DNA from: Xenophilus azovorans DSM 13620
GTDB taxonomy: Bacteria > Pseudomonadota > Gammaproteobacteria > Burkholderiales > Burkholderiaceae_C
Length of the DNA stretch: 64,000 bases
Assembly (NCBI RefSeq): GCF_000745855.1
Contig: NZ_JQKD01000015.1
Coordinates: 62,001-126,000 of the forward strand
Direction of reading: 5' to 3'
Below the pieces are notes generated by a model. The model did no database searches, was not told where the DNA came from, and worked only from the letters and a program-made list of their open reading frames with translations. Position numbers and translations under genes: made by a program. This document shows positions 2,773-61,977 of the stretch, in pieces. Every line of letters begins with the position of its first letter. Positions within the stretch are counted from its first letter, which is position 1.

Positions 2773-2804
2773 GCACCGCGGCCCGCCAGGGCGAAGGTAT
2801 TCCA

Positions 2805-4541
2805 GTGAGCAACGTGACGTGGGAGCGTGAAGTCGACGTGCTGGTGGTGGGCGCCGGCGCCGGCGGCATGGCGGCCGCGCTGAGCGCGCACCTGGGCGGC
2901 TGCTCGGTGCTGCTGGTGGAGAAGACCGACCGCGTCGGCGGCTCCACGGCCGTGTCCGGCGGCGCCGTCTGGGCGCCGATGAACGGCCAGAGCGAAGGCG
3001 CCGGCCACCCCGACAGCTTCGCCAAGGCGTGGACCTACATGCGCAACACGGTGGGCGACGCGGCGCCGGCCGACATGCAGCGCGCCTTCCTCGAAGCCTG
3101 CGGCCCCGCCATCGACGCGCTGGAGCAGCACACGCAGGTGAAGCTGGCCGCGCGCACCTACTCGCCCGACTACTACCCGGACCGCGAGGGCGCCGCGCTC
3201 GGCGGCCGCTCGCTGGACCCGCTGGCCTTCGACGGCCGGCTGCTGGGCCGGCACTTCCGCGAGCTGCGCGACCCGCTGCCCGAGTTCGTGGTGCTCGGCG
3301 GCATGATGATCACGCTGACCGATGCCAAGCACCTGCTGTCGGTGACGAAGTCCTTCGCCTCCTGGAAGGAGGGCATGAAGCTGGTGCTGCGCTACTTCGC
3401 CGACCGGCTGCGCGGCTACCACCGCGGCACGCGGCTGGTGCTGGGCAATGCGCTGGCCGGGCGGCTGTTCATGTCGGTGCTGGAGCGCGGCATCGACTAC
3501 TGGCTGAACGCGCCCCTGAAAACGCTGCAGGTCGAGGACGGCCGCGTCACCGGCGCCTGCATCGAGCACGAGGGCCGTCCGACCTGGGTGCGCGCACGCC
3601 AGGCCGTGGTGGTCGCCACCGGCGGCTTTCCGTGGAACGCGGCGCTGCGCGAGCAGCTCTACCCGCATCCGACCGGCCCCTGGTCCATGTCCCCCGCCGG
3701 CAACGCCGGCGAAGGCATCGGCATCGCGCAGGCCGCCGGCGCAGCCCTGGGCAACGACCACTTCGGCCCCGCCTTCTGGGCGCCGGTGTCGCTGCTGCAG
3801 CGGCCCGACGGCACGCAGGTGCGCTACCCGCACCTGGTGTGGGACCGCGCCAAGCCGGGCCTGATGGCGGTGAACGCCGCAGGGCGCCGCTTCGTCAACG
3901 AGGCCACCTCGTACCACGAGTTCGTGCTGGCCATGTACCGCTCGAACGAGACGGTGCCGACCATCCCGGCCTGCCTGGTGTGCGACAGCGACTTCATGGA
4001 ACGCTGGGGCCTGGGCCTGGCGCTGCCGGGCGGCCGGCCGCGCGAGCACCTGGTGCGCGCCGGCTACCTGCACCGCGCCGACTCGCTGGAGGCGCTGGCC
4101 GCGCAACTGCAGATCGACGCCGCGGGGCTGCGCGAATCCGCGGCCCGCTTCGACGGCTACGGCGCCACGGGCGAGGACCCGGAGTTCGGCAAGGGCAGCA
4201 CCGAATACAACCGCTACCTCGGCGATGCGGACCATCGCCCCAACCCCTGCCTGGGGCCGCTGCGCAAGGCGCCGTTCTACGCCGTCAAGGTCTACGCGGG
4301 CGACATCGGCACGGCCTGCGGCATCCGCTGCAACGCGCAGGCGCAGGCGCTCGATGCCGGCGGCCAGCCCATCCCCGGCCTGTACGCGACCGGCAACGAC
4401 ATGCAGTCGGTGATGGGCGGCCAGTACCCGGCGCCAGGCATCACGCTCGGGCCCGCGCTCACCTTCGGCTGGGTGGCCGGCCAGCACATCGCGCGCGAAC
4501 GTTCCAATACTCCCTCTTCCACACAGGCGGCAGCGTCATGA
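2805..4541 (+). CDS. FAD-dependent oxidoreductase, ketosteroid-dehydrogenase / fumarate-reductase flavoprotein type
   Basis: This is an FAD_binding_2 family flavoprotein of about 578 aa, close in length to 3-ketosteroid delta-1-dehydrogenases. The N-terminus has the dinucleotide-binding motif VVGAGAGGMAAAL, then a VEK acidic end and GGSTAVSGG, the FAD-contact motif of the family. The C-terminus has GLYATGND and a GGQYPAPGITLGPAL segment that closes the FAD site. I place the start at GTG 2805 because a Shine-Dalgarno-like GAAGG lies 7 bases upstream and because a palindromic intergenic element occupies the upstream extension. An in-frame ATG at 2739 is the alternative. It overlaps the GST gene by 4 bases and probably catalyses a dehydrogenation in the same pathway. 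Confidence 0.85.
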   Translation: MSNVTWEREVDVLVVGAGAGGMAAALSAHLGGCSVLLVEKTDRVGGSTAVSGGAVWAPMNGQSEGAGHPDSFAKAWTYMRNTVGDAAPADMQRAFLEACGPAIDALEQHTQVKLAARTYSPDYYPDREGAALGGRSLDPLAFDGRLLGRHFRELRDPLPEFVVLGGMMITLTDAKHLLSVTKSFASWKEGMKLVLRYFADRLRGYHRGTRLVLGNALAGRLFMSVLERGIDYWLNAPLKTLQVEDGRVTGACIEHEGRPTWVRARQAVVVATGGFPWNAALREQLYPHPTGPWSMSPAGNAGEGIGIAQAAGAALGNDHFGPAFWAPVSLLQRPDGTQVRYPHLVWDRAKPGLMAVNAAGRRFVNEATSYHEFVLAMYRSNETVPTIPACLVCDSDFMERWGLGLALPGGRPREHLVRAGYLHRADSLEALAAQLQIDAAGLRESAARFDGYGATGEDPEFGKGSTEYNRYLGDADHRPNPCLGPLRKAPFYAVKVYAGDIGTACGIRCNAQAQALDAGGQPIPGLYATGNDMQSVMGGQYPAPGITLGPALTFGWVAGQHIARERSNTPSSTQAAAS

Positions 4542-42640: not shown

Positions 42641-42728
42641 TGGCGGAGAGTGTGGGATTCGAACCCACGGACGGTTGCCCGTCGGCAGTTTTCAAGACTG
42701 CTGGTTTAAACCACTCACCCAACTCTCC
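42641..42728 (-). tRNA. tRNA-Ser (anticodon TGA)
   Basis: The 88-base minus-strand gene has acceptor arms GGAGAGT and ACTCTCC, an encoded CCA (42643-42641), a TTCGAATCC T-loop and a long variable arm as in class II tRNAs. The anticodon loop CTTGAAA gives anticodon TGA at 42694-42692, decoding UCA. It lies 13 bases after hemW on the same strand and is followed by a strong terminator. Confidence 0.97.
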
Positions 42729-47523: not shown

Positions 47524-48435
47524 ATGCCAGTTTACAGCATGACCGGCTACGCCAGCGGGCAGAGCGGCCCGTCCGGCCCCCCCGAAGACAAGGAAGGCAG
47601 GGCGACGCCTGCAGGCCGCCTCGGGGTCGAGCTCCGCTCGGTCAACAGCCGCTATCTGGACCTGAGCTTCAAGCTCGCCGAAGACCTGCGACAGCACGAG
47701 CCGGCATTGCGCGAACTGCTCACCCGGCGGCTCAAGCGCGGCAAAGTCGAGGTGCGCGCCGCCGTCGATCTGCCCTCCGCCAGCCTGGCCGAGCCCAGCA
47801 CCCGACTGCTGCAGCGCCTCAACGGCCTGCAGGACGCGGTGCGCGCCTGGCTGCCGGAGGCACGCGGACTCAGCGTCGCCGACGTGCTGCGCATGGCGGC
47901 CGGCGACACCGCCACGCCCACCGCCGGCAGCTTCGACGTAGTGGCCGTCGTGGGCCGTGTGGTCGACGACCTGGTCGCCGCCCGGGCGCGCGAAGGCGAG
48001 CGGCTGGCCGCCATGCTGCGCGAGCGGCTGGCCGCGCTGCGACGCCTGGCCGGCCAGGCTGCGCCGATCGTTCCGCAGCTGGTGGAACAGCAGCGCACCC
48101 GTTTCCTGCAGCGCTGGCAGGAGGCCATGGGCCTGGCCGGCGGCACCGCCCCCGAGGCCGCCCAGGAACGCGCCCTGGCCGAAGCCACCGCCTTCGCCAT
48201 CCGCATCGACGTGGCGGAGGAACTGACCCGCCTGGCCGCGCACCTGGACGAGATCGAGGCCCTGCTCGACAACGGCGGCGAGATCGGCAAGCGCCTGGAC
48301 TTCCTCATCCAGGAACTGCACCGCGAGGCCAACACGCTAGGCTCCAAATCGGCCACCCTGGAACTGACGCGCGTCGGCGTCGACATGAAGGTGCTGATCG
48401 AGCAGATGCGCGAGCAGGTGCAAAACATTGAGTAG
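47524..48435 (+). CDS. yicC: YicC/YloC-family endoribonuclease
   Basis: This 303-aa product is full length, starting VYSMTGYASG and ending KVLIEQMREQVQNIE, the standard YicC terminus. It contains the N-terminal YicC domain (VELRSVNSRYLDLSFKL) and the DUF1732 region (RIDVAEELTRLAAHLDEIEA, then GKRLDFLIQELHREANTLGSK). E. coli YicC is an endoribonuclease acting on small RNAs. Normally gmk follows; here an integrase gene follows, so the mobile element entered just downstream without damaging the protein. Confidence 0.95.
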   Translation: MPVYSMTGYASGQSGPSGPPEDKEGRATPAGRLGVELRSVNSRYLDLSFKLAEDLRQHEPALRELLTRRLKRGKVEVRAAVDLPSASLAEPSTRLLQRLNGLQDAVRAWLPEARGLSVADVLRMAAGDTATPTAGSFDVVAVVGRVVDDLVAARAREGERLAAMLRERLAALRRLAGQAAPIVPQLVEQQRTRFLQRWQEAMGLAGGTAPEAAQERALAEATAFAIRIDVAEELTRLAAHLDEIEALLDNGGEIGKRLDFLIQELHREANTLGSKSATLELTRVGVDMKVLIEQMREQVQNIE

Positions 48436-48721
48436 GCAAATTGGCGGGTTCAAGCGGTCTCATGCCACTCCAACCCACCACGTAAACCGTTGATCTTCAT
48501 AGGAAAGTAGGTTCAGGCCGTCGCGCGGCGTCTCACCACAGTGCACGCTCTTGTGGGGGTATCCGTGGGGGTCTCGGGCTCAGCGCCCAGATCTCCGCGG
48601 TGTTTTGGCACAGACCCCCACAGGCTCCCCGGAGAGCCGCGCCAGGACTGGATTTCCGCGTTTCCCGCGGACCCCCACATGGCGCGCTCTCCATGTTCCA
48701 AATCTGGAAGGAGATCGCGTG
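48436..48721. other. Probable left attachment region of the mobile element with integrase arm-type repeats
   Basis: The 286 bases between yicC and the integrase hold no gene. Four copies of a T/C-GTGGGGGT-type decamer occur: two direct (48552-48561 and 48564-48573) and two inverted, GACCCCCACA at 48613-48622 and 48670-48679. Such repeated G-rich decamers fit arm-type integrase sites. The core site probably overlaps the end of yicC or the next 50 bases, but the other element end is outside the window, so the direct repeat cannot be shown. Confidence 0.55.
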
Positions 48722-50077
48722 ATGTCAGTGGCTGACAATGAAATCGCAAAGAAGGTGAGTGACATTGCCCTGCGGGCCTGGCTACGCGCCGGGCCTGTCG
48801 ACAAGGGCATCGGTGGTGGACTGACGTTTGTGGCCTCGGCCTTCGCTGCCGAGAGAGGTCAGGCCTCCTGGGTCCTGCGCTACCGCTTCGCCGGCAAGAG
48901 CAAGGAGAAGATGCTCGGACGCTACCCCGACATCTCGCTGCAGGCGGCGCGCGAGCTCGCCCGCATTGATCGGGCGAAGGTCCAGCAAGGCATAGACGTC
49001 GCTGCGGAGAAGCAGCAGGCCAGAATCCTCGAGCGGCGCAAGCGGCCCTGCCTGGCCCTGCGAAGGGTGTGGCACCGACGCTACATCGTGCCGAACTACG
49101 GCCAGCCGGAACGGATCGAGTCCACGTTCGTGCGCTATGTGGACCCGATCATCGGGCACCTCATGGTCGACCAGGTCGAGCCGGAGCACATCGAACGCAT
49201 CCTGGACCGCACCGTCAAGGCCGGCGCGCCGACCGTGGCCAATGACCTGCTCCGCTACCTGGTTCGGATGTTCGACTTCGCCGTGCGCAAACGCTACCGA
49301 ACGGACAATCCCACGACGGGCTTCTCGCTGCAGGACGCCGGCGGTACCGAGCGAGCCCGGACCCGCTGGCTCGATTGCGGGCAATTGTCGGAGCTGGCCA
49401 CAGCCATGCGGGAGACGGAGACCTTCGGGCGGATCAACGAGCTGTCCGTCTGGCTCCTCCTGGCGCTGTGCGTGCGCAAGATGGAACTGCTGTCAGCGAA
49501 GAAGTCCGCCTTCAACTTCCAACGCGCCCAATGGGCGCTGACCAGCGAAGACACGAAAACGCGGGCACCGCTCATCATTCCGCTGCCCGCGGTCGTGGTC
49601 GGCTGGCTCGAGGAGGTGATGGTGTTCTCGGGCAAGAGCGAGTACCTCTTCCCCGCCCGGCGCAAGGTCCGACGGCGAATGGGCAAGCCGGCGACGAACC
49701 GCTTTCCGCACATCTCGCCCGATACGCTCAACGTCGCGCTGGGACGCCTGACGACCTTGGAGATCGCGCACTTCACCGTCCACGACATGCGGCGCACCGC
49801 TCGGACCCACTTGGCGCGCATGGGCATCGCCCCCGACATCGCAGAGCGGGCCCTGAACCATGCAATCCAGTCCACCGAGGGCATCTACAACCAGTACGAC
49901 TACATGCGGGAACGCAGAGCGGCGCTGTCGCGGTGGGCGAACTACCTGCACTCGCTGGAGCAGGGGACGCCGCTGCCTGAGGAGCATGAGGTGGAAGGCG
50001 AGGCCGCGCTGCCTTCGGGCGGCCCGTCCTTCCGTGCAGCGCCGCCACCGGCGGTTCGGTGGAGGACCGCCTCCTGA
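48722..50077 (+). CDS. Tyrosine-recombinase integrase (P4/DUF4102 type)
   Basis: This 451-aa integrase has an N-terminal arm-binding domain (residues 1-100, with VLRYRFAGKSKEKMLGRYPD and the SLQAARELA helix). A SAM-like core-binding domain (about 130-200) and a catalytic domain follow. Catalytic residues are Arg252 (CVRKMEL), His354 and Arg357 (HDMRRTA), His380 (LNHA) and Tyr389 (GIYNQY), so it should be active. ATG 48722 has a GGAAGGAGA site. It is the first gene inside the element and presumably recombines it into the site after yicC. Confidence 0.93.
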   Translation: MSVADNEIAKKVSDIALRAWLRAGPVDKGIGGGLTFVASAFAAERGQASWVLRYRFAGKSKEKMLGRYPDISLQAARELARIDRAKVQQGIDVAAEKQQARILERRKRPCLALRRVWHRRYIVPNYGQPERIESTFVRYVDPIIGHLMVDQVEPEHIERILDRTVKAGAPTVANDLLRYLVRMFDFAVRKRYRTDNPTTGFSLQDAGGTERARTRWLDCGQLSELATAMRETETFGRINELSVWLLLALCVRKMELLSAKKSAFNFQRAQWALTSEDTKTRAPLIIPLPAVVVGWLEEVMVFSGKSEYLFPARRKVRRRMGKPATNRFPHISPDTLNVALGRLTTLEIAHFTVHDMRRTARTHLARMGIAPDIAERALNHAIQSTEGIYNQYDYMRERRAALSRWANYLHSLEQGTPLPEEHEVEGEAALPSGGPSFRAAPPPAVRWRTAS

Positions 50078-50103: not shown

Positions 50104-50652
50104 TCACGCGCGACCGCCGAATCGGTCGCACTTCGACCGCAGCGCGCAGCCACGGCAGGCGGCGTCCGCGGCCGCATAGGCAGGTGCCTCCTGCCGCGCC
50201 AGAATGGCCCGCCGCCGCCGGTGGAGACGGATCAGCGCGTCGGCCTCCAGCAAGGCCACGCGGTGAGAGCGAATTCTCTCGCCACGACCCGGTCCGAGGA
50301 CCGACACGAACGCATACGGCTCCACCACCTCACCCGTCTGCTGCTGGACCGCAAGCCGCTGCGCCGATAGCTGGATGACGTCGGTCAGATAGGGCCGGTC
50401 CCGCCGACGGGTTTTCAGCTCCACGAGCACCAGGGAACCACCCAGCAGTCGATACACGCGGTCGACTTTTGCCACCAAGCGGAAAGGCTCGCGGATACGA
50501 AAGAGCGTCTCCATATAGACCAGCTCGGCATGAGCCAGTGCCCTCGGCCTCGAAGCCCGTTCGTCCCGGACTTTCTTGCGGGCCTGCCAGATCAGCGCCA
50601 GCAGGAACACCAGAACCAGGCCGGTCAGCGCGAATCCCAGCGGAAGGGTCAT
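50104..50652 (-). CDS. Membrane-anchored Cas4-like PD-(D/E)XK nuclease with C-terminal Cys cluster
   Basis: This 182-aa protein begins with one transmembrane helix (residues about 5-24, GFALTGLVLVFLLALIW). The body has the nuclease core: Asp in VAKVDRVY, then VELKTR with the catalytic Glu and Lys, and the helix LTDVIQLSAQRLAVQ. The C-terminus has CRGCALRSKC, three Cys like the Fe-S end of Cas4/AddB nucleases. The usual first Cys of Cas4 (in an FCxxR motif) is absent here but appears in the preceding gene. It lies 2 bases after that gene, the last of the leftward operon. No CRISPR array is present. A role in element DNA processing is inferred. Confidence 0.72.
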   Translation of the reverse strand: MTLPLGFALTGLVLVFLLALIWQARKKVRDERASRPRALAHAELVYMETLFRIREPFRLVAKVDRVYRLLGGSLVLVELKTRRRDRPYLTDVIQLSAQRLAVQQQTGEVVEPYAFVSVLGPGRGERIRSHRVALLEADALIRLHRRRRAILARQEAPAYAAADAACRGCALRSKCDRFGGRA

Positions 50653-50654
50653 GT

Positions 50655-51101
50655 CTAGCCCCTTCTCCTTCTGTTGAGCGTCCTTTGGCACCACGACACC
50701 GCGACGCGCAACAGCCTGCGCAGGCCTGCCGCTGTCGCGGGCGAGCGCTCCAAGACACGCGACACCGCCGGCGCGCTCCAGTAGTACGTCGCCACGGCCC
50801 ACCGGCCCCAACAGCGGCGCAGGAGCACCTCATCGCGGTAGGCGCGAAGCACCTGCGTCTCCGATGCATCCGGCCCGAACACGAAAGTAGCCACGAAGCA
50901 TCGCCGATCCGAAGAGGACGCCATTCCCTGCTCGTAGTACGACTGATGGGCTACCTGGCCCCGCGTCCTGGCGACACGCTGCTCGAGCGTGACGTGCTCC
51001 CCGTGCAGGTGCTCGAGCAGCACCCGCATTTCGCAGAAGCCCATCTCCGCCAGCTCTTTGGCGCTCACCTCGTCGCACGGGCGAAGTCTTTGCTTGGCCA
51101 T
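50655..51101 (-). CDS. CFI-box C-terminal protein with Cas4-like N-terminal motif
   Basis: This 148-aa protein has two parts. Residues about 10-50 (ELAEMGFCEMRVLLEHLHGE, then RGQVAHQ) look like the first Cys and His helix of Cas4-type nucleases. Residues about 60-130 carry the CFI-box: CFVATFVFGPDASETQVLRA, then YRDEVLLRRCWGRWAVATYY and SAPAVSRVL. The CFI-box is a poorly understood C-terminal domain found on many unrelated proteins. Together with the next gene it might rebuild a split Cas4-like nuclease. ATG 51101 is chosen; an upstream extension is possible. Confidence 0.65.
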   Translation of the reverse strand: MAKQRLRPCDEVSAKELAEMGFCEMRVLLEHLHGEHVTLEQRVARTRGQVAHQSYYEQGMASSSDRRCFVATFVFGPDASETQVLRAYRDEVLLRRCWGRWAVATYYWSAPAVSRVLERSPATAAGLRRLLRVAVSWCQRTLNRRRRG

Positions 51102-51108
51102 GCCCGCC

Positions 51109-51387
51109 TCACTCAGCCAGCCCAGGACCGAAGACCTCATTGGTCACCGTGGCAGCCCTTGGCACCGCATCTTCACGGGCCGGCGCGGTCACGGGCACCG
51201 CCGCCGCGAAAGAGAAGACCCCGTGCTGCGCGAGGAGCCCGTCGTACGCCAGGACGCGCAGACGGTTGACCCGCTTGACCCCTTGCGGGAACCGCATCAG
51301 TTCGTCGTACAGCCTTGGGTTTTCCGCCCGCTCCAACTCAAACACGAGCCGGACTGCCTTGGCCTTGTCCCGCGTGAGCTCGTTCAT
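51109..51387 (-). CDS. Small protein in the ParR position after the actin-like ATPase gene
   Basis: This 92-aa protein was not recognised by motif. It is charged and helical at the N-terminus (MNELTRDKAKAVRLVFELER), then LYDELMRFPQGVKRVNRLRV, which could be a ribbon-helix-helix or other DNA-binding helix pair. An Ala/Pro tail follows. The ATG overlaps the stop of the ParM-like gene as ATGA, the position held by the adaptor gene parR in parMRC systems. A centromere-binding adaptor role is inferred from position only. Confidence 0.55.
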   Translation of the reverse strand: MNELTRDKAKAVRLVFELERAENPRLYDELMRFPQGVKRVNRLRVLAYDGLLAQHGVFSFAAAVPVTAPAREDAVPRAATVTNEVFGPGLAE

Positions 51388-52415
51388 GCGACCTCTCCCT
51401 GACCACGATCGCGCCCAACGGCCATCGCGCTGGTGGCGTAGTTGAGCCCAGCGAGTTGAAAACCACGAACGTTCGCAAACATCGGCTCCTTGACCTCGTG
51501 GATGCGGTGCTTCGGGAAAGCGGCCTTCACAGCCTTCTTGAACAGAAACGCGCCTCCACCCACCAGAATGATGTTCTGGATGCTTTCCGGCGTCTCGATC
51601 CACTGGCGCATGGTCGAGACCGCCTGCTGCGCGACGCTCTCGGCCAATGGCAGGTGCTTCTTCATGTCATAGGGCTTCTGGAAAATGACCGGCGCTTTGC
51701 CTGTGCGTAGAGCCAGGTCGATCGCGTCGTAGTCGCGGTACGGCGTGCCGACGTCCTTCGAGATCTCGGCCGCGAGCAGCCGCAGCACATCGGACATGCC
51801 GCGGTTGATCGAGCTCGACTGCTTCTGCACCAGGCGCATCCCGCGTGTGACCAGCCAGTCGAAGGTACGGGAGCCGGGGTCGACCACGAGGCTCTGCTCG
51901 TTGCCTATGGTCGCCATCTTCTCGTGCTCAGCCGCGTAGTGAACCAGCGCGCCCTGCGGTTGCGCGATGGCCAGCGCCTTGCCTACGGTCACCGTCTTGC
52001 CGCCGCCCACCGAATGGCTACCAGCCATCGCCTTCTCGAGCGCTGCCTTCTTGAGTGTGAATAGCGCCACCGGCAGACCGACGATCAGCAGGTCGATGTG
52101 CGGCACCTTCATGAAGCTCAGTGCACCGCGCAACAGCGCCATGTACTCGGGTGTGTCGGTGTAGTCGTCGTGCAGTTGCTTGGCGCGGAAGGTATCCGCG
52201 GCCAGGCTCACATCGGGCCCGACTTCGTAGAACAGCGGCCCCACCGGGATGCAGACGGTCTTGCGCCGCTCGCTGGCCGGCCAGTGGGTTGACTCGCCGC
52301 TTGAGGGGTAAGCCACGGATGGGAAGCTGCTGCAGCGAATCTCGGCGCCCGCGATGCCGGTGATGAATTTGGTGTTGCCGGACCCGACATCTACCGCTCG
52401 GACGATCATTTCCAT
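51384..52415 (-). CDS. PRTRC protein D: ParM/StbA-like actin-family ATPase
   Basis: This 343-aa actin-fold protein has phosphate-1 (RAVDVGSGNTKF, residues about 5-17), phosphate-2 (VVDPGSRTFDWLV, near 175) and the adenosine motif (NIILVGGGAFLFKKAV, near 292). ParM proteins form filaments that push plasmid or element copies apart. PRTRC D is the actin-like member found with PRTRC operons. The start follows AGGAG with 7-base spacing. A large nested palindrome lies 104 bases upstream and may be its centromere or operator. It leads the four-gene leftward operon. Confidence 0.85.
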   Translation of the reverse strand: MEMIVRAVDVGSGNTKFITGIAGAEIRCSSFPSVAYPSSGESTHWPASERRKTVCIPVGPLFYEVGPDVSLAADTFRAKQLHDDYTDTPEYMALLRGALSFMKVPHIDLLIVGLPVALFTLKKAALEKAMAGSHSVGGGKTVTVGKALAIAQPQGALVHYAAEHEKMATIGNEQSLVVDPGSRTFDWLVTRGMRLVQKQSSSINRGMSDVLRLLAAEISKDVGTPYRDYDAIDLALRTGKAPVIFQKPYDMKKHLPLAESVAQQAVSTMRQWIETPESIQNIILVGGGAFLFKKAVKAAFPKHRIHEVKEPMFANVRGFQLAGLNYATSAMAVGRDRGQGEVA

Positions 52416-54788: not shown

Positions 54789-55148
54789 TCAGGCAGCCCG
54801 CAGTTCGTCAGCAGTCTTGCCGCTGGCCAGCGCCTCGGTGAACCACTTGGGCTTGGGGCCGAAGCCTGACCACGAATTGCCGGCGCCATCCTTGAACTTG
54901 ATACGCCCGGCTCCGCGCTTCGTCTTCCCTGCCGTCTCGGCGACCGTATCTGCCTTGACTGCCTTTGTTCCCGTGCGAGCGCCAGAGCCGAGGCCTAAGT
55001 CCGACGCCGTGATGCCATAGTAGGCAACGGCATCCTTCATGCGGGCAATGACGCCAGCCTTCTCGGATTCACGAATCTCGTTCGCCTGCTGTTGCAGCTT
55101 TGCGATCTCCGCGTCGATTTCCTTGAGCGTCAGTTTGTTGCGGGCCAT
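54789..55148 (-). CDS. H-NS family nucleoid protein
   Basis: This 119-aa protein has an N-terminal coiled coil (LTLKEIDAEIAKLQQQANEI, residues about 5-50) and the C-terminal H-NS DNA-binding domain. The latter reads KFKDGAGNSWSGFGPKPKWF, near the AT-minor-groove loop where the usual RGR is replaced by FGPKP. Elements often carry an H-NS copy to silence themselves and limit fitness cost. ATG 55148 matches the common MARNKL start, although the ribosome site is weak. It lies 121 bases downstream of the PRTRC operon. Confidence 0.88.
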   Translation of the reverse strand: MARNKLTLKEIDAEIAKLQQQANEIRESEKAGVIARMKDAVAYYGITASDLGLGSGARTGTKAVKADTVAETAGKTKRGAGRIKFKDGAGNSWSGFGPKPKWFTEALASGKTADELRAA

Positions 55149-55269: not shown

Positions 55270-55488
55270 TCAGGTCGCCACGGACACCTCGAACTCCTCA
55301 TCGGGATAGATGGCCGCACCACGGGGACCAACCCCACCCGCTTCCACTTCGTCCTCGGACAAGCCGTAGCGCGAGAGTGCCGCGCACCGCGCCATTGCCT
55401 CGGTGGACTCGGCCACCTGCCCAATGTGGATGGCTCTACCTTTGCGCATCACGCGCACATTCCATTGCTTGATGCCCATTCGCTTCAT
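55270..55488 (-). CDS. Small PRTRC-associated hypothetical protein (72 aa)
   Basis: This was not recognised. The 72-aa protein has a beta-rich start (WNVRVMRKGRAIHIGQVAES), a helix (TEAMARCAALSRYGLS) and a Gly-Pro loop before a final strand (DEEFEVSVA). It overlaps the stop of the ThiF gene as ATGA, so it is part of the PRTRC operon and its last gene. A role with the E1-like protein is only a guess from coupling. Confidence 0.65.
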   Translation of the reverse strand: MKRMGIKQWNVRVMRKGRAIHIGQVAESTEAMARCAALSRYGLSEDEVEAGGVGPRGAAIYPDEEFEVSVAT

Positions 55489-56381
55489 GCCTCGTCGAGG
55501 GTTTCGGACTCCTGCGCTTCGGATTCCTTCTCCTGATGCCGAAAGCCGAACCGCGCCCAGGTGCGCGGATCGACCTCGATGGGACCGCTGCGCTTGGACT
55601 CCAGATTGACCACGACACCATGCGCGGACAACCGCCCTTTCGAGAACAGCTCATAGAGAAGCTGCGCGGCAAAACGCACCGCCACGTCGTTGACGAACAG
55701 TCCCTGCGAGGCCAGTGACATGCGCACCGAGCAGGACGGCAGGTTGTCCTCGGGGATGGCGTTGTCGAGCAGCTCTGGGAACAGTTCGGTCACGCATGGC
55801 AGGCGTGGCCCTGCCGAACCCGGTTCCGAAGCCGAATCACCTTCGGGCTCGCCCAGCACCACCTGCGCCGTGGCCTCGGTGTTACCGAGGTCCAGCCAGT
55901 ACCAATAGCGGCTGCTATCGCGCCACGCGATGCGATGGAGCATGCCCCGCGCCGAGCGGCTGTCCACGCAACTGATCAGCAGGTCCGCGCCCGCCGAGTA
56001 GCGTTGGCCGTTCACATGGTCCTCGTAGCGGGTCGGATAGGCTGCCCAGTCCAAGCCGTAGAACTGGTTCAGGCGGTGGATGGTCACCAGGGCCTTGTGC
56101 CGGCCGATGTCGACCGCGCTGTACAACTGCCGCCCGACATTGGCCTCGTTCACGCGGTCCGCGTCGAAGGCGGTGACGTGCAGCCCATAGGGATGGCCGA
56201 GCGCGCGCATCGCAATGTCCAGGCGGGCGAGACAGGCCGCCATCTGTGCGCCATTGCCGCCCACGCCGACCAGATGCACCGCCACGCGGCGCTCCAGCAG
56301 TTTGGGATGAATCAGGTGTTCCACCAGCGCCTCCAGTTCCAATGTGTTCTGCGACCAGTCTCTCGCGAAGCGCTGGGGCAT
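55485..56381 (-). CDS. PRTRC system ThiF family protein (E1-like activating enzyme)
   Basis: This 298-aa E1/ThiF-fold enzyme should adenylate the C-terminus of a ubiquitin-like protein. It has the nucleotide loop GVGGNG (residues 39-44), Asp in AFDADRVNEANVGRQ (about 73-85, including the Arg that contacts ATP) and a Lys at 97. Cys138, Cys196 and Cys217 are candidates for thioester formation. I place the start at ATG 56381, whose A is shared with the stop of protein A (TGATG), rather than the longer ATG at 56414. It is next to JAMM, E2-like and ubiquitin-like genes. Confidence 0.9.
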   Translation of the reverse strand: MPQRFARDWSQNTLELEALVEHLIHPKLLERRVAVHLVGVGGNGAQMAACLARLDIAMRALGHPYGLHVTAFDADRVNEANVGRQLYSAVDIGRHKALVTIHRLNQFYGLDWAAYPTRYEDHVNGQRYSAGADLLISCVDSRSARGMLHRIAWRDSSRYWYWLDLGNTEATAQVVLGEPEGDSASEPGSAGPRLPCVTELFPELLDNAIPEDNLPSCSVRMSLASQGLFVNDVAVRFAAQLLYELFSKGRLSAHGVVVNLESKRSGPIEVDPRTWARFGFRHQEKESEAQESETLDEA

Positions 56382-57082
56382 CAACCGCGCTGCCAGCGGC
56401 GCATCACGCGCCACATCCAGCCGTCGCGCATGGCACTGGGTCCCTCATCTTCCGACCTGAGCGCATGTGCCTGCGTCGCTTGCCAGGGGTGGCGCTCCAA
56501 CGGTTTGTAGAGGCCGTTGATCACCAGCCGGAAGCACGCCATCGGCACGCGCTGGTCCAGCAGCCCGAACACCCCGGCGACCTTGATGCCTTGGTCGTCC
56601 CGGTCGTCGTCGGCCGACCAGAAAGCAGGCCCATGTCCGTGCGTGTGCAGGTCCACCGCCACCGTCTCGTCGCCGGCCATCGGGGGTCGGCGGTAGTCGA
56701 TGTGGATGGGCGAGGCGCGCTCGGCCTCGCAGATCGCCAGGCGCAGCCGCCCGGTGCTGCGTGCATAGATCAGCACCCCGGCGACTTCATCGGGCAGGTG
56801 CGCCCGCCCATAGGCTACGAAGTCCTCGATCATGCGGATGGGCAGTGGCCCGAAGCTGAACCGTAGGCGTTCTTGCACCTCCCCGTAGGGCAGGCGCATC
56901 GTGGGCGGCTCCGGTCCCAGGGCGGTGATGCTGTCGAGCCAGTCGAGCCGGGTCTGCACGAACCAGCCGTTGCGGGCCACGACGATGCGCTGGCCGTTGG
57001 GCATGTCGGACAGCGCGCCGAAGCGCGGCGCGGCCACTACTGGGCAGGTTGCGAGCAGGGCTTGGTCCCTCGGGTCCATCAT
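56381..57082 (-). CDS. PRTRC protein A: JAMM/JAB-type metallopeptidase
   Basis: This 233-aa protein carries a perfect JAMM zinc motif. Glu99 (LPDEVAGVLIY) is the likely general base, and His146, His148, Ser156 and Asp159 fit H-x-H-x7-S-x2-D (HTHGHGPAFWSADD). Enzymes with this motif cut after ubiquitin-like C-termini. The N-terminal 95 residues are a separate region with strands (QRIVVARNGWFVQTRLDWLD). It overlaps protein B (ATGA) and is coupled to ThiF. A deconjugating or precursor-processing role for protein C is inferred. Confidence 0.88.
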   Translation of the reverse strand: MMDPRDQALLATCPVVAAPRFGALSDMPNGQRIVVARNGWFVQTRLDWLDSITALGPEPPTMRLPYGEVQERLRFSFGPLPIRMIEDFVAYGRAHLPDEVAGVLIYARSTGRLRLAICEAERASPIHIDYRRPPMAGDETVAVDLHTHGHGPAFWSADDDRDDQGIKVAGVFGLLDQRVPMACFRLVINGLYKPLERHPWQATQAHALRSEDEGPSAMRDGWMWRVMRRWQRG

Positions 57083-57819
57083 GCGTCCTCCGGCTCACCG
57101 AGCAGGTGGCCCAGCGTGGTCTTGCCATCGACCAGCACCCGCTCGGGGAAGCGTGCGAAGCGCTGGTCCAGCATGTCGCGCCAGAAGGCGTAGGAGCCGC
57201 CCCGGTAGCGAAGCAGCTTGCCCGCCACGTTGGGATGCGTGAAATAGGAGCGCAGGAAGGCGTCGTTCCAGGCACCGATCTTCTCCACCGTGGTGCCTTC
57301 GGGCACCGGCACGTTGCCTTGGCAGATGTGGCCGTGGGCATCAACGTTGAAAAACGGGGCCTGGAACAGAGGCGTCTTCGGTGTCGGGCGGCGGCTGCCC
57401 TTGACCGCCCACACCCGCCATGCGCGGCTGGAGGCCGCGAAAACGAGTCCGGGCAAGGGCACGGCGTCGCCGCGCTCCGTGCCACCGAAGGACTCGGCAT
57501 GGTCGTCGCCTACGCGGAAGGCGATGTGGCGCCGTGCAGGGGGCACCCACCAGAGCAGCACATCGCCATGCAAGTACAGCACCGTCTCGGGCAGGAAGCC
57601 GCCGTGGGCGGCGCGCTGGAGCAAGGCCGAGGCCAGTTCGCGCGCCGCCTGAGCAGTCATGGCGCGGCCCGCGCCGATCACGGGTGCGCCGTCCACGGTC
57701 ATGACCTCATGCACGGTGGCGAGCGCCCCGCCCGAGCGTCCGTGGTACAGCAGCACAGCCTGGTCCAGCGTCAGCACGTTGTCCGTGGGCGTCTGAATGG
57801 AGAATTCCGCTTCGTTCAT
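57079..57819 (-). CDS. PRTRC protein B: E2-like conjugating-fold protein
   Basis: This 246-aa protein has a single cysteine, Cys166, in HGHICQGNV after FFNVDAHG. This matches the E2-like active-site Cys loop described for prokaryotic ubiquitin-like systems. Upstream strands include LYLHGDVLLWWVPP and RHIAFRV; downstream helices include AWNDAFLRSYFTHPN. Use of its only Cys for thioester transfer from the ThiF protein is inferred. It lies between F and A in the operon, overlapping A by 4 bases. Confidence 0.85.
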   Translation of the reverse strand: MNEAEFSIQTPTDNVLTLDQAVLLYHGRSGGALATVHEVMTVDGAPVIGAGRAMTAQAARELASALLQRAAHGGFLPETVLYLHGDVLLWWVPPARRHIAFRVGDDHAESFGGTERGDAVPLPGLVFAASSRAWRVWAVKGSRRPTPKTPLFQAPFFNVDAHGHICQGNVPVPEGTTVEKIGAWNDAFLRSYFTHPNVAGKLLRYRGGSYAFWRDMLDQRFARFPERVLVDGKTTLGHLLGEPEDA

Positions 57820-57838
57820 CTTTGATGACCTCCTGCGA

Positions 57839-58900
57839 TCAGTCTCCAGCGGACAGCCCGTGGATCAAGCGGTCGATCAGGCCGATGGCCTCGAAGCGCT
57901 GGCCCATGTGGTGGAACCACACGCCGAGCGCGCCGGGATCGTTGAGCGGGATCATCACTTCGCCCATGCGGTCGCAGAACTCGGCCTGATGTGCCATCTG
58001 CAGCAGGTCGTCGTAGATGCGTGTGGTGACATCACCCTCGCCCCAGGACAGCACCGCGCCGAACCCGATGTACTCGCCCTCGATGTCGGGCTTGAAGTCG
58101 TCGGTGAGCGTCAGCTGGGACAACGCCAACGCATCGACGGCGATCTGGCGCAGATGCCGGTCGGCGAGCGTCTTGACAGCTTGGCGCAGGCTGCAAGGTC
58201 GCCATGCCGGAGCGCCCTTGCGCCGGCGCTCGCCCTTCCCGGGGCGGTGCAACCAGCGCCGGGCCCACTCGGGGTAGGCCTCGTCCAGCATGCGGCGGGT
58301 GACCATTTCTTCGCGCATGCCTTCGCGGTCGGCCGCGTCGCCGTCCTCGCACATCATGTCCAGCGCCGCTTCCTCATCCATTTCTCCCTGCCAGTACACA
58401 TAGGACGCCACGTCGTCGGCAATGTCCGGGGTGAACAGCGGGTACACGTAGCGGCTCTGCTCGCGCAGCACCTGCAGGACGGTGGAACCCAGGTTCGGCA
58501 TGGCGGCGTTAAGCGCCTCCAGGCGCTGGCCCACCGCCCACTCGGCCTCCCGGTACTCGCACCAGTACACGTCGAGTTGGGCGTACGGCGTCTGCCGCCC
58601 GTCGCGCATGGCCGGGTAGTTGCCGTGCTCGTCGAGCACGCTGACCGCGAAGCGCGGCTCCAGGCAGTGGAGCGGCCCGACCTGCCGCTTGATCCAGGCG
58701 TCGATGGCGCGCTGGCAGGCCTTCAGCGGGTCGGCTTCGTTGTCGGGCAGGTCGTGCTCGCGGACCACCCCAGCTTCGACCAGGAAGCGGCACAGGGCCG
58801 CGTTGGCACCGGATTGGGAACTCGATGCGACCGTCAGCAGCACGCCCGCGCCCAGGCTGGGCAGCGCGAGGACCGGCATGCAGGCTGGCGCGAACCTCAT
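57839..58900 (-). CDS. PRTRC protein F
   Basis: This 353-aa protein matches the PRTRC F pattern by position and composition; its function is not known. It begins with a short hydrophobic part (MPVLALPSLGAGVLLTVAS) that may be a strand rather than a membrane helix. It continues with Trp/Tyr-rich strands (VYWCEYREAEWAVGQRLEAL), an acidic helix (EMDEEAALDMMCEDGDAADR) and a basic patch (GKGERRRKGAPAWRPC). No catalytic motif is recognised. It overlaps protein C by 4 bases and precedes protein B by 19. Confidence 0.8.
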   Translation of the reverse strand: MRFAPACMPVLALPSLGAGVLLTVASSSQSGANAALCRFLVEAGVVREHDLPDNEADPLKACQRAIDAWIKRQVGPLHCLEPRFAVSVLDEHGNYPAMRDGRQTPYAQLDVYWCEYREAEWAVGQRLEALNAAMPNLGSTVLQVLREQSRYVYPLFTPDIADDVASYVYWQGEMDEEAALDMMCEDGDAADREGMREEMVTRRMLDEAYPEWARRWLHRPGKGERRRKGAPAWRPCSLRQAVKTLADRHLRQIAVDALALSQLTLTDDFKPDIEGEYIGFGAVLSWGEGDVTTRIYDDLLQMAHQAEFCDRMGEVMIPLNDPGALGVWFHHMGQRFEAIGLIDRLIHGLSAGD

Positions 58901-59349
58901 GGCAGCGGGGCGAGCATGTCGCTGGTGGCGTGGGTCCGTTGGGCGGCGGCATCATGGCGGTGCTGCTCCAGCGTGCGGTGCGCGAAGCGGCTCCAGGCCG
59001 CCGAGCGGGCTTGCACGGCGCGCTGCGACAGGGCGCGGGAGAGCTTAGACGTGTCGCTGGAGCTGCCGGATTCGCTGGCCTGCACGCGCTCCAGCAGGGC
59101 CGCGAGGCGGGGACCGGCTTGAGCGTCTGGCGCCTCGATGCCTGCGCCCTTGGTGCCCACGGCCTTGCGGAACGTGAAATCCTGGCGTCCGTTGGCGACT
59201 TCACCGGCCTCGACTTCCGCGCTGACCAGTTCGGGGTATTGGGCGCTGTACAGATCGCGCACCTCGCGCGGCGACAGGCCGGGCACGTCCGGCAACAGGA
59301 TGCCGTTGTAGGTGAAGGTGCGCACGATGGGGGTGACCTCGATCGACAT
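58897..59349 (-). CDS. PRTRC protein C: ubiquitin-like protein with C-terminal extension
   Basis: This 150-aa protein has an N-terminal beta-grasp domain (residues about 8-68): IVRTFTYNGILLPD, the helix SPREVRDLYSAQYPEL, and GRQDFTFRKAVGTKG ending in Gly68. PRTRC C proteins and multi-ubiquitin domains have this form. An 82-aa tail follows (AGIEAPDAQAG, then helical Ser/Arg-rich segments), so the domain is not C-terminal as translated. The JAMM protein could cut after GTKG to expose Gly for activation by ThiF. ATG 59349 has a strong AAGGAGC site; the longer ATG 59382 form is less likely. Confidence 0.8.
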   Translation of the reverse strand: MSIEVTPIVRTFTYNGILLPDVPGLSPREVRDLYSAQYPELVSAEVEAGEVANGRQDFTFRKAVGTKGAGIEAPDAQAGPRLAALLERVQASESGSSSDTSKLSRALSQRAVQARSAAWSRFAHRTLEQHRHDAAAQRTHATSDMLAPLP

Positions 59350-59444
59350 GGCAAGAAGCTCCTTGGGGATGGTGGCCACCACGGCGGTGGTCTTGCGACC
59401 AGTCTCTCGCCGGGGGCGCGGACGTCAAGAGCGTCACGGGCCGG

Positions 59445-59945
59445 TCAGCCGAACAGGTCGTAGGACTCGCCGCCGCCACCGGCTTCTGCGCCTGCCATCG
59501 CGGGGGCCTGTGCATCCTGCGCATCGTCATCCGCTGCATCCTGTGCCTGGACCGCCGCGCTGGCCGTGCTCGCCGGGGCGGTGGCTTGCACTTGCTTCGC
59601 GGGGGCGGGCTTGGCCACCGCCCTAGCTGCGTTCGTGGTGGCATCGCTGGCCTTCTTCACCGAAGCCGCCTTCGCGGCCTCGATCACTTCCATCGTGGCT
59701 TCGGCCTGCTGCGCGAGGCTGGAGCGGACCTCGCGGTAGCCGCGCAGCGCGTCGATGAAGCCCGCATCGAACTCCTGCGGCGTGGCCGTCAGGCTCAGGG
59801 GCTGGGCCAGCGCGGGCTCGCCCGCGTCGGGCTTCGGCTTGGGGATCACGTTGACCGTCAGGCGGCCGGATTTCTCGTCGGCGCTCACGGTCATGGTGAG
59901 CGTGGCGCTGCAAGCCAGCGCGAACAGTTCTTCGAACATTGTCAT
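59445..59945 (-). CDS. PRTRC protein E
   Basis: This 166-aa protein has an N-terminal domain (residues 1-85) with strands ATLTMTVSADEKSGRLTVNV and the segment LSLTATPQEFDAGFIDALRG typical of PRTRC E. An Ala/Lys-rich region follows, then an acidic Ala-rich tail ending GGGGESYDLFG. The last residues resemble a short linear motif for partner binding. There is no known catalytic function. It lies between parB and protein C, with an AAGGAG ribosome site. Confidence 0.8.
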   Translation of the reverse strand: MTMFEELFALACSATLTMTVSADEKSGRLTVNVIPKPKPDAGEPALAQPLSLTATPQEFDAGFIDALRGYREVRSSLAQQAEATMEVIEAAKAASVKKASDATTNAARAVAKPAPAKQVQATAPASTASAAVQAQDAADDDAQDAQAPAMAGAEAGGGGESYDLFG

Positions 59946-60044
59946 GTCATGCTCCTTGGGGGAATGTGGGGACGTGGCCCCGTAGGGGGGCCGTCCAGAC
60001 CATGCTAGGACCGCCCCCCCTGCTGTCCAGGGGCCGCTTCGTGG

Positions 60045-61847
60045 TCAGGCCATGGCCGGCTCTGGTTGCCTGTCGAATGTGCGGTCGGTGACCTCGGAAC
60101 CTTCCCCCTCATCCACTTCTCCCTCGAGGCCATCAGCCAGGATCGGCTGTCGCGGGTAGCGCATCACGGCGGGCACCGTCCCCTGGTAGCTGAAGCCCGG
60201 CACCTTGAGCAGCGCCGTAATGAACTCCTGCTTCTTGCTGGCGCGCGCCGCCTTGAAGCCCGCACCCATGGCCTTCTTCAGCCCCACTTCCGCCGCAAGG
60301 CTCTCCAGTTCGCTCATCGTGAACAGGTCGAGGAACTCCTTGTCCCACTGGAAGTACCGGCCTTCATCGACCTCGGCGTAGTTCAGCAGCAGTTCCAGGT
60401 CGCTGGTGTTGACGCCAAAGGCAGCGGATGCCGTGGCGGCTTGCAGCAAGCGATCCAGTTGGGCCTCGGGCGCCGCATCGGCGCGTTGGAGCCCACCCCG
60501 CACACCGAACGCGGCTGGTGCGGTCTGGCCCGCGATCCGCTCGAAGGCATTGCGGAACTGTGCCTCGCGCAGGTCGGCGCCACGCCCGGCCAATACCAGG
60601 GCGATGAGCACGCGCTGGCTGCGCTGCGGCTGCGCCATCAGGGCCTTGGCCAGCCATTTGCGCCACTCGGTCAAGCGATGCGCGACCACGCGCTGCGGCG
60701 TCTGGTTCGCGGGGGCCGATGCTGCTGCGGCCTTGTGCCTAGCCTTGGCTTTCTGGCCCGCCTTGCCCGTACCCTTCGCCGTGGGCTTTGTCGCGCCCTT
60801 GCCTGCCGCCTCGGTCACCGCCGCCTGCGCATCGCGCTGCGCCTTGCGCCACAGAGCGACCTTCTGGCTGTTGCACGCGGCATCGAAACACAGGGACCGG
60901 CTGACCTCGCCGTAGCTACCGGGCATCGCCGACACGGTGCATCCGAAGGACTGGCACCCCTGGCACGATGTGTACTGCGGTGCGCCGACCCCCAGGTCGC
61001 CCTCGGCAGTGAGCGGCAGCGGCGTGAAGCCGTCTGACACGTTCACGATGCGGATCACGGGGTACTCGTCGCGCAGTGCATCGGCGCGGGCCTGCACGGC
61101 TTGCAGCGTCAGTTCCTCGAAGTGGCTCGGATGCTGGCAGTAGCCCTCGCCCAGGGATTCCGTAAAGAGGCCCGCCTGCCGCGCCGAGTTGTGCGCGCAG
61201 CGGCTGCACTGCGCCGTGTCGAAGATCGCGTCGCTCAGCCGCCGTGCGTAGCGGCCGAGTTGTGACTTGAGCACGGCCACCGGCACCTTCTGCGCCAGCA
61301 CGCCCGCCAGCACGCTGCCCTGCTTCTCCGGTGGGATCCCCGAGAGCAGTTCGGCATGGCCGAGCTGGATGCTGCGCGTCGTCAGTGCCTTGAGCACGGC
61401 GGGCGTGCAAGCCATCAGCGCCAGCCGCCGTTCCAGCACTTCGGGCGACCAGCCCATGAGGCGCGCGGTTTCTTCCTTGTCGCCGCGCTGGCGCATCAAC
61501 TGCCGCTGCGCGGCGCGGGCCTCCTCGGCCGGCGACATGGCGGCGCGGTGGTAGTTCTCGATCACCGACATGGCCTCGGCCGTCTCGTCGCTGGCGTCCT
61601 TGATGACCACGGGCATGTCGTAGTCATCACCGAAGACGTTCTTGGCCGCCCGCCAACGGCGCTCACCGGCAATGATCTCGAATAGCTCGGTGCCCGGGAT
61701 CGGCCGCACGACGATGGGCTCTAGGACACCGACCGCGCGGATGCCCTCCTCCAGTTCGGCCATCTCGTCAGGATCGAAGTATTCGCGGGGGTTCTTGCCC
61801 TGGACGATCAGACGGATCGGCAGGGTCGGCTGCATGGATGGGGTCAC
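60045..61847 (-). CDS. PRTRC system ParB-family protein
   Basis: This 600-aa protein has an N-terminal ParB/Srx domain (residues about 15-110, with IRLIVQGKNPREYFDP and IIAGERRWRAAK) and a KorB/ParB helix-turn-helix region (ETARLMGWSPEVLERRLALM). It continues with four or more Cys-pair zinc-like motifs (CSRCAHN, CQGCQSFGC, CFDAACN). A Lys/Ala-rich linker and a long C-terminal domain unlike chromosomal ParB follow. GTG 61847 is preferred because AGGAGG lies 4 bases upstream; ATG 61883 is an alternative. It leads the PRTRC operon and probably binds element DNA and may hydrolyse CTP like other ParB proteins. Confidence 0.88.
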   Translation of the reverse strand: MTPSMQPTLPIRLIVQGKNPREYFDPDEMAELEEGIRAVGVLEPIVVRPIPGTELFEIIAGERRWRAAKNVFGDDYDMPVVIKDASDETAEAMSVIENYHRAAMSPAEEARAAQRQLMRQRGDKEETARLMGWSPEVLERRLALMACTPAVLKALTTRSIQLGHAELLSGIPPEKQGSVLAGVLAQKVPVAVLKSQLGRYARRLSDAIFDTAQCSRCAHNSARQAGLFTESLGEGYCQHPSHFEELTLQAVQARADALRDEYPVIRIVNVSDGFTPLPLTAEGDLGVGAPQYTSCQGCQSFGCTVSAMPGSYGEVSRSLCFDAACNSQKVALWRKAQRDAQAAVTEAAGKGATKPTAKGTGKAGQKAKARHKAAAASAPANQTPQRVVAHRLTEWRKWLAKALMAQPQRSQRVLIALVLAGRGADLREAQFRNAFERIAGQTAPAAFGVRGGLQRADAAPEAQLDRLLQAATASAAFGVNTSDLELLLNYAEVDEGRYFQWDKEFLDLFTMSELESLAAEVGLKKAMGAGFKAARASKKQEFITALLKVPGFSYQGTVPAVMRYPRQPILADGLEGEVDEGEGSEVTDRTFDRQPEPAMA

Positions 61848-61977
61848 GGTGCCTCCTGGCTGCATCGGGTGAATTGCAGTCATCCTCCCGCCTCGCCTCT
61901 CTGGTTCAACCCCCGGCAAGGCGCACCGCTGAATGCCGATGCGGCTCCTGGCTCCAGGGGTCATGCAGAATGTGGCT

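What the first reader, a model, noticed from the sequence alone, without database searches (positions are those of the whole stretch)
55270..61847. A complete ubiquitin-type conjugation set inside a ParB-headed mobile-element operon (PRTRC)
Seen in sequence: one tightly coupled operon encodes an E1-like ThiF enzyme, an E2-like protein with a single Cys, a JAMM peptidase with a perfect H-x-H-x7-S-x2-D motif and a beta-grasp protein ending its domain in GTKG. Proteins E, F and a 72-aa protein are in the same operon. It is headed by ParB and accompanied by a ParM-like ATPase gene. Established: PRTRC is a named gene set on plasmids and integrative elements, and related E1-E2-JAB-Ub operons (for example Bil) act against phages. 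Inference: this system may modify ParB, ParM or a host or phage protein to control element segregation or defence. I know of no described biochemical function for PRTRC.
Basis: partly seen in the sequence, partly recalled or inferred. Interest (0 to 1): 0.92.

Follow-up and report, generated by a model that had tools for sequence, protein, structure and literature searches.

The report
Mobile ubiquitin-like conjugation operon, hidden gene
This mobile DNA carries a known but functionally unexplained set of bacterial genes resembling the ubiquitin tagging machinery; comparing about 180 relatives suggests its tag is made as a precursor fused to a small protein that the databases tested do not name, and that the same machinery also travels on phage-like DNA without the usual partition gene.

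Summary
The operon at 55270-61883 (minus strand) is a canonical PRTRC cassette: ParB, E, C (Ubl), F, B (E2), A (JAMM), ThiF (E1), with D (ParM-like) nearby. The E1/E2/JAB/Ubl/alpha-helical set is not new: it is operon type 6d of Iyer et al. 2006 (PMC1779556). Catalytic residues are almost invariant across relatives, so Ubl conjugation is the best reading.

The 'ParB-headed' framing is too narrow. Phage-like contigs, one named phage and Bacteroidota elements carry E-C-F-B-(A)-ThiF with no PRTRC ParB or D found; the Bacteroidota loci also lack PRTRC_A.

New here: (1) a ~60-aa un-named protein 'X' lies between C and F, or is fused behind the Ubl's GTKG; the window has the fused form. (2) C-terminal extensions after GxKG occur only where PRTRC_A is present: 64 of 85 versus 0 of 78. 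This suggests JAMM cuts a Ubl-X precursor. (3) E often has a short hydrophobic tip resembling, but rarely matching, a sliding-clamp motif.

Substrate and purpose remain unknown; ParB is unlikely to be the obligate substrate. No biochemistry was done.

The parts
60045..61883 (-). PRTRC ParB-family protein (first gene of the operon)
   Evidence: TIGR03734, 754.9 bits; ParB_N and HTH_ParB
59445..59945 (-). PRTRC_E: N-terminal family domain, low-complexity linker, C-terminal tip SYDLFG
   Evidence: TIGR03741, 102.9 bits; tips compared
59448..59459 (-). codons of the E C-terminal tip DLFG
   Evidence: translation; DLFG or DLF-like ends in most of the window's relatives L181-L191
59146..59349 (-). 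PRTRC_C ubiquitin-like domain, ends ..VGTKG
   Evidence: TIGR03738 104.6 bits, Prok_Ub 68 bits; alignment; residue numbers
58897..59145 (-). 82-aa C-terminal extension of C (fused protein 'X', ends ..TSDMLAPLP) plus stop; overlaps the start of F by 4 nt
   Evidence: no Pfam or NCBIfam match at E<=0.1
57839..58900 (-). PRTRC_F, alpha-helical protein
   Evidence: TIGR03742 327.5 bits, alpha-hel2; model pLDDT 74.8, no convincing fold match
57079..57819 (-). PRTRC_B, E2-like protein, Cys166 and His195
   Evidence: TIGR03737 264.1 bits, Prok-E2_D 161.6 bits; model pLDDT 87.6
57322..57324 (-). codon of E2 Cys166
   Evidence: Cys in 164 of 164 aligned homologues
56381..57082 (-). PRTRC_A, DUF2016 (JAB-N) plus JAMM peptidase
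   Evidence: TIGR03735 198.4 bits, Prok-JAB, DUF2016
55485..56414 (-). PRTRC ThiF, E1-like: G-loop from residue 50, Arg95, Asp151, Cys228
   Evidence: TIGR03736 306.6 bits; residues; profile matches E1, ThiF, MoeB and Cap2 chains in the PDB
55270..55488 (-). 72-aa protein, no family
   Evidence: among the loci searched found only in window, L181 and L182
51384..52415 (-). PRTRC_D, ParM-like actin-family protein
   Evidence: TIGR03739 535.6 bits; ALP_N
54789..55145 (-). H-NS-like protein between D and the operon
   Evidence: Histone_HNS 40.8 bits
53605..54747 (+). integrase-like protein between D and the operon
   Evidence: Phage_int_SAM_2 and Integrase_1, just over cut-off
48551..50077 (+). 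tyrosine integrase beside yicC, probable edge of the integrated island
   Evidence: Arm-DNA-bind_3 and Phage_integrase; YicC at 47524-48435

Best explanation
PRTRC is a ubiquitin-like conjugation system of mobile elements; ParB and D are add-ons of some plasmid and island forms. Inferred mechanism for the window: C is made as a precursor, Ubl-GTKG-X. The JAMM protein A cuts after GTKG, freeing the Ubl's terminal glycine and releasing X. ThiF adenylates that glycine and passes the Ubl, via Cys228 and then Cys166 of B, to a protein target; A can also undo conjugates. F, E and X are frequent partners for scaffolding or target choice. Bacteroidota forms make the Ubl already ending at the glycine and lack PRTRC_A. 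The target is unknown; I think an element, phage or host DNA-metabolism protein more likely than ParB itself. Shown: gene content, residue conservation, C-terminal anatomy and the JAMM/extension association. Inferred: cleavage, conjugation, target.
Confidence: 0.6

Rival explanations
1. One reading: the system modifies ParB or the ParM-like D protein to control segregation of the element.
For: ParB over 100 bits heads the operon in the window, 4 of 8 named records, 18 of 20 of the first IMG/VR group and 10 of 11 loci fetched from genomes found with the window's PRTRC_B family; D lies nearby in the window and 5 of those relatives.
Against: ParB over 100 bits is in 0 of 60 of the second IMG/VR group and 0 of 80 of the genome loci, while the conjugation core persists. 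The ParB profile came from 5 proteobacterial sequences and could miss diverged ones; weaker ParB-like hits exist in L041, L049, L069 and L074.
Confidence: 0.13
2. Anti-phage defence or superinfection exclusion: phages and plasmids carry it to mark or block competitors, in the manner of Bil.
For: In L059 the operon lies between a repressor and an integrase; an integrase relative is within the locus in 40 of 60 phage-like loci (six seeds, five of them from these loci). The window's contig also carries a SIR2/short-pAgo pair just beyond the window.
Against: At E<=0.01 PADLOC gives no match for C, B, A, E, ParB, D or the 72-aa protein; ThiF matches CBASS-type E1-E2 models only weakly and F one Jet model at E 0.002. 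Frequent linkage to E, F and X, and to ParB in plasmids, is not explained.
Confidence: 0.25
3. E tethers the machinery to the DNA sliding clamp through its tip, so replisome proteins are marked, a bacterial parallel to PCNA modification.
For: 51 of 69 non-redundant E linkers carry [LIVMAPG][SDTN][LMI][FLWY] (shuffle mean 4.2, max 10); in 24 of 69 it lies in the last 9 residues. Several distant E proteins have QLSLL, QLTLL, QVTMF, QADLF or QGSLF. Clamp motifs are defined as Q-phi-x-[LM]-[FL] (PMC11139829, passages).
Against: The patterns and weights were chosen after seeing the tips. The canonical motif with Gln occurs in only 4 of 69 (shuffle mean 0.5, max 4), and the review reports that replacing Gln by Glu, Ala or Gly greatly lowers affinity. 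The window tip SYDLFG lacks Gln and its best score is not significant against its own shuffles (p 0.067); 17 of 69 have p of 0.05 or more.
Confidence: 0.15
4. The extension behind GTKG is never cut; it replaces a free C-terminus and C acts as a structural, non-conjugated subunit in the extended forms.
For: Extensions are of several unrelated kinds; no cleavage has been shown.
Against: A GxKG-type motif is kept in front of the 64 extensions counted (this is also how they were found), E1 and E2 active sites stay invariant, and extensions are absent where JAMM is absent.
Confidence: 0.15
5. ThiF/C do sulfur transfer for a metabolite, like ThiS or MoaD.
For: ThiF is homologous to ThiF, MoeB and MccB.
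Against: A dedicated E2-like protein is linked in the window and most relatives, and no biosynthetic gene was recognised among the operon proteins scanned.
Confidence: 0.04

Closest known systems
Iyer, Burroughs & Aravind 2006 operon type 6d (PMC1779556, section 14 read in full; table and other passages)
   Same: Ub-like protein with C-terminal Gly, JAB with an N-terminal domain, E1-like, E2-like with Cys and a downstream His, alpha-helical protein; listed for Ralstonia metallidurans, Bacteroides thetaiotaomicron and others.
   Different: They report a JAB always fused or adjacent; PRTRC_A was found in 0 of 80 best genome loci here. The search counted no 'ParB' in the paper. In what I read they describe neither X, the Ubl-X fusion, the E tip nor carriage of this type by phages.
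NCBIfam PRTRC cassette, TIGR03734-TIGR03742
   Same: The window has every named member above cut-off.
   Different: No NCBIfam model matched the 9 X sequences tested; the core also occurs without a recognised ParB and D.
Bil (BilABCD) anti-phage system (details recalled; one citing passage seen)
   Same: E1, E2, Ubl and JAMM in one operon (recalled).
   Different: PRTRC adds E, F, X and often ParB; I know of no defence assay for it.
CBASS type II Cap2/Cap3 (recalled; search listings only)
   Same: E1/E2/JAB chemistry; the ThiF profile matches Cap2 chains.
   Different: A separate Ubl gene; no CD-NTase recognised in the operon.
Eukaryotic ubiquitin-ribosomal protein fusions (recalled)
   Same: A Ubl precursor with a C-terminal partner released after the final Gly.
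   Different: Here the partner is an unknown ~60-80-aa protein and the predicted protease is a JAMM; cleavage is not shown.

Membership tests
PRTRC cassette (NCBIfam) | ParB, ThiF, A, B, C, E, F and D models above curated cut-offs, close together | tested here: met
Operon type 6d (Iyer et al. 2006) | JAB with an N-terminal alpha+beta domain next to E1 | tested here: met
   DUF2016 (taken as their JAB-N) + Prok-JAB in A, adjacent to ThiF
Operon type 6d (Iyer et al. 2006) | E2-like protein with conserved Cys and a conserved His further downstream | tested here: met
   Cys166 and His195; Cys in 164 of 164 aligned, His in 162 of 165 aligned
Operon type 6d (Iyer et al. 2006) | small beta-grasp protein with a conserved C-terminal glycine | tested here: met
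   Prok_Ub domain ending GTKG; in the window the Gly is followed by 82 residues; the fold was not modelled here
Operon type 6d (Iyer et al. 2006) | largely alpha-helical protein | tested here: met
   alpha-hel2 match and a mostly helical model
Ubiquitin-like conjugation system | ATP-dependent thioester and isopeptide conjugates | not testable with these tools
   needs protein work
E2 (UBC) fold in B | structural match to E2 enzymes | tested here: inconclusive
Bil anti-phage system | assignment to Bil by defence models | tested here: inconclusive
   no such match in PADLOC-DB 2.0.0 of 2023
CBASS type II | CD-NTase in the operon | tested here: not met
   Pfam scan of 10 proteins (operon, D, integrase-like) found none
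Sliding-clamp-binding protein (E) | canonical motif Q-phi-x-[LM]-[FL] in the window protein | tested here: not met
   window tip SYDLFG lacks Gln
Anti-phage defence | protection against phage | not tested
   needs plaque assays

The most novel reading that the evidence does not exclude
PRTRC is a bacterial counterpart of replisome (PCNA-type) ubiquitin/SUMO marking: plasmids, islands and temperate phages share a Ubl machinery whose E subunit tethers it to the host sliding clamp, whose Ubl is released from a Ubl-X precursor by a JAMM, and whose released X partner helps choose the target, so that the element steers host replication. ParB and D are add-ons.
Probability: 0.1. Interest if true: 0.93.

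Novelty: new variant of a known kind. Interest (0 to 1): 0.62.

Why it matters
PRTRC genes sit on many plasmids (297 PLSDB records match PRTRC_B by tblastn), and the papers opened here use PRTRC only as a label in annotation or expression tables. Showing that the conjugation core lives without a recognised ParB, that a small conserved protein absent from Pfam and NCBIfam belongs to it, and that the Ubl carries an extension only where PRTRC_A is present turns an unexplained cassette into testable predictions: one cleavage site, one released product, one catalytic cysteine. It would also place ubiquitin-like conjugation in temperate phages, where PHROGs gives no match for window C, B, A, E or F at E<=0.01.

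Tried and rejected
Tried without result: PDB profile searches with B (no hit), C (23 weak hits, best ribosomal uS19 at E 0.028) and F (three hits, best E 0.075); Foldseek and VIA with F gave nothing usable. C, X, A and ThiF were not modelled (two structure jobs only). 'PRTRC' matched 26 papers, 20 listed, six opened; three of these are false hits: two on pRtrCIAT899 and one on the PRtrc1O promoter. The tRNA-Ser at 42641-42728 was considered as an attachment site and dropped, because a HemN-type radical-SAM gene, a kinase gene and YicC lie between it and the integrase. Sulfur transfer was considered and judged unlikely. A second phage query, with a phage B, gave only the phage already found.

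Limits: the genome scan query had a Bacteroidota sequence first and the best 80 of 280 relatives were kept; the viral scan kept the best 80 of 165. These are not random samples, and some loci are near copies: 146 of 163 C proteins are distinct. Profiles for ParB, A and D came from 5, 5 and 1 sequences. L001 (a copy of the window) was dropped before the counts. L118 (C broken) was set aside in the C counts. In the Bacteroidota split, L157 (record title Clostridium) was counted as Bacteroidota, and IMG/VR contigs, whose hosts are unknown, as not, except L089. The pattern for X and the weights and patterns for the E tip were written after the sequences had been seen.
Full report
What is there. 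On the minus strand, in order: ParB 60045-61883, E 59445-59945, C 58897-59349, F 57839-58900, B 57079-57819, A 56381-57082, ThiF 55485-56414 and a 72-aa frame 55270-55488; D (ParM-like) lies at 51384-52415. Each named protein passes its NCBIfam PRTRC cut-off, and Pfam gives Prok_Ub, Prok-E2_D, DUF2016 + Prok-JAB, ThiF and alpha-hel2. Four of the seven junctions are overlaps. The genome has one match to PRTRC_B. PRTRC_B occurs in 5 of 398 genomes drawn from the phylum and 10 of 299 from the family at E<=0.001 (both counts include the window's own genome; 9 of the 10 pass the cut-off), and in 297 plasmid records.

Context. High-GC3 genes run up to YicC (47524-48435). Then come a tyrosine integrase (48551-50077), a PD-(D/E)XK protein, D, an integrase-like gene, an H-NS-like gene and the operon. 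This looks like an integrated island with its edge near 48.5 kb (inference). Beyond the window the same contig carries a SIR2-type protein and a short prokaryotic Argonaute.

Already known part. Iyer et al. 2006 described operon type 6d: Ub-like protein with a C-terminal Gly, JAB with an extra N-terminal domain, E1, E2-like protein with Cys and a downstream His, and an alpha-helical protein (PMC1779556; section 14 read in full, other passages). The window is a member. In three other papers PRTRC appears as a label in annotation or expression tables (PMC7466150, PMC10434189, PMC12420198; passages). My searches of the open-access library (listings, with selected papers opened) showed no biochemical study of PRTRC and no description of the points below; papers outside that library, and most listed papers, were not read.

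ParB is not the core. A viral-contig scan found 165 relatives of ThiF; the best 80 were kept. In the first 20 (71-76% identical in ThiF to a Novosphingobium plasmid protein), ParB over 100 bits is present in 18 of 20; these may be plasmids. In the other 60 it is in 0 of 60, while E is in 52, C 54, F 54, B 60, A 54 and ThiF 60, some contigs ending inside the operon. Integrase relatives lie within 40 of those 60 loci and 2 of the first 20 (six seeds, five from these loci), and in L059 the operon lies between a repressor and an integrase. Burkholderia phage BgVeeders33, with capsid, portal, terminase and tail genes, carries E-C-X-F-B-A-ThiF; no ParB was found in the 24.7 of 32.9 kb fetched. A genome scan gave 280 relatives, best 80 kept, by record title nearly all Bacteroidota: ThiF 80, B 78, C 72, E 71, F 33 by profile, and PRTRC_A, ParB and D each 0 of 80. 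B is followed directly by ThiF in these loci. A JAMM-like pattern hit 12 frames there; six loci hold a HNHPS frame, RadC-like by recall, in L102 just upstream of E; they are not PRTRC_A. Weak ParB-like hits in L041, L049, L069 and L074 were not counted. In 11 loci from 10 genomes found with PRTRC_B, ParB over 100 bits is in 10. So ParB and D accompany plasmid and island forms, and are unlikely to be the obligate substrate.

A small protein, X. Between C and F lies a ~40-80-aa frame that Pfam and NCBIfam do not know (9 examples tested in each; one Pfam hit at E 0.03, below its cut-off). Its C-terminus is conserved by lineage..LPVSxMPVLP or ..APSxNHxVLP in phages..PPPGLRLAPLG in sphingomonad-type loci..SAPxxLLPMVF or ..APSGAVILF in Bacteroidota. 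By a regular expression written after seeing them, X is separate in 122 and fused in 26 of 163 loci, with 9 of 163 hits on the opposite strand as control; one fused call, L044, is doubtful. Fifteen loci miss the pattern, including the window, L181 and L182, whose fused ends ..SDMLAPLP..SEMLTPLP and ..SDMLVPLP are similar by eye to ..SDMLAPLP of L183 and L184, which pass. In 21 hand-picked pairs of stand-alone X, dN/dS was 0.08-0.73, pooled pN/pS 0.37.

Ubl fused to X, and JAMM. In those loci X follows GTKG in frame. Other C proteins have different extensions (a cluster of 15 with ..HVCPLLDEE.., a cluster of 6 with ..WL.., some singletons), and loci of these two clusters also have a separate X. 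Counting any residue after GxKG: JAMM+ 64 with, 21 without; JAMM- 0 with, 78 without (p 2.6e-27). Of the 64 extensions 53 are 20 aa or longer. Relatedness inflates this: outside Bacteroidota it is 64/21 against 0/5 (p 0.0015), and after dereplication at 60% Ubl identity 7/4 against 0/18 (p 2.1e-4). The residue after GxKG is Ala in 30 of 64. In the window the extension is 82 aa and its stop overlaps the start of F by 4 nt, as several stand-alone X genes do. Five relatives (L181-L184, L187) keep the fusion and also carry D. The simplest reading is a precursor cut by A after GTKG, freeing a conjugation-ready Ubl and X. This is an inference.

E tip. E has a conserved start, a low-complexity linker and often a terminal hydrophobic tip: TLDLF, GVDLL, PASLW and GLELPI in the first set, mostly DLFG or DLF-like in the window's relatives. 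In 69 non-redundant E proteins, 51 have [LIVMAPG][SDTN][LMI][FLWY] after residue 100 against a shuffle mean of 4.2. With a hand-made clamp score, 52 of 69 beat their own shuffles at p<0.05, the window (p 0.067) and 16 others not. It resembles the clamp-binding motif Q-phi-x-[LM]-[FL] (PMC11139829, passages; PMC4549789, passages), but the canonical form with Gln is in only 4 of 69 (shuffle mean 0.5, max 4). The same review reports that replacing the Gln by Glu, Ala or Gly greatly lowers affinity. Clamp binding is a lead, not a result.

Verdict. Observation confirmed; conjugation reading supported, known since 2006; ParB/ParM targeting not favoured. The new, testable content is X, the Ubl-X precursor with its link to JAMM, carriage of the core on phage-like elements without a recognised ParB, and Bacteroidota forms without PRTRC_A.

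Noticed in passing
L170:139-1986 and 1986-3437 (G000 contig C12, just beyond the window's right end): A SIR2-type protein followed by a short prokaryotic Argonaute on the same contig (PADLOC Aga_SIR2 673 bits and pAgo_I 632 bits).
   Followed up: partly
L170:4532-6322, minus strand: DinG-like helicase frame near the short Argonaute; a 274-aa part of it matches PADLOC typeIV_DinG at 165 bits.
   Followed up: no
window 48551-50077: Tyrosine integrase directly after yicC; yicC may mark the island's insertion site. Attachment repeats were not sought.
   Followed up: no
window 50104-50811: PD-(D/E)XK nuclease-family protein with weak Cas4 similarity beside the integrase.
   Followed up: no
window 55270-55488: 72-aa protein coupled to ThiF; among the loci searched it is found only in two close relatives, L181 and L182.
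   Followed up: partly
L182:6092-8600, minus strand: PRTRC_F appears split into two separated pieces in this relative, as if interrupted.
   Followed up: no
L089:9783-9989: In this contig a 68-aa protein stands between B and ThiF where PRTRC_A sits in other forms.
   Followed up: no
L008 (Vibrio plasmid pSEA1), 8824-9552 and 12880-13626: Two different PRTRC_B-like frames in one cluster, with ThiF separated from the first by about 4 kb.
   Followed up: no
L007:14224-15330: A plasmid-borne dnaN (sliding clamp) about 4 kb after PRTRC ThiF on a Pseudomonas megaplasmid.
   Followed up: no
L005:15059-16225: A DUF6527 protein beside another ThiF-family gene on the same Bacteroidota plasmid as a PRTRC operon.
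   Followed up: no
L157 and L162: MAG records titled Clostridium and Legionellaceae were found with the Bacteroidota-led query; mis-binning or transfer was not examined.
   Followed up: no
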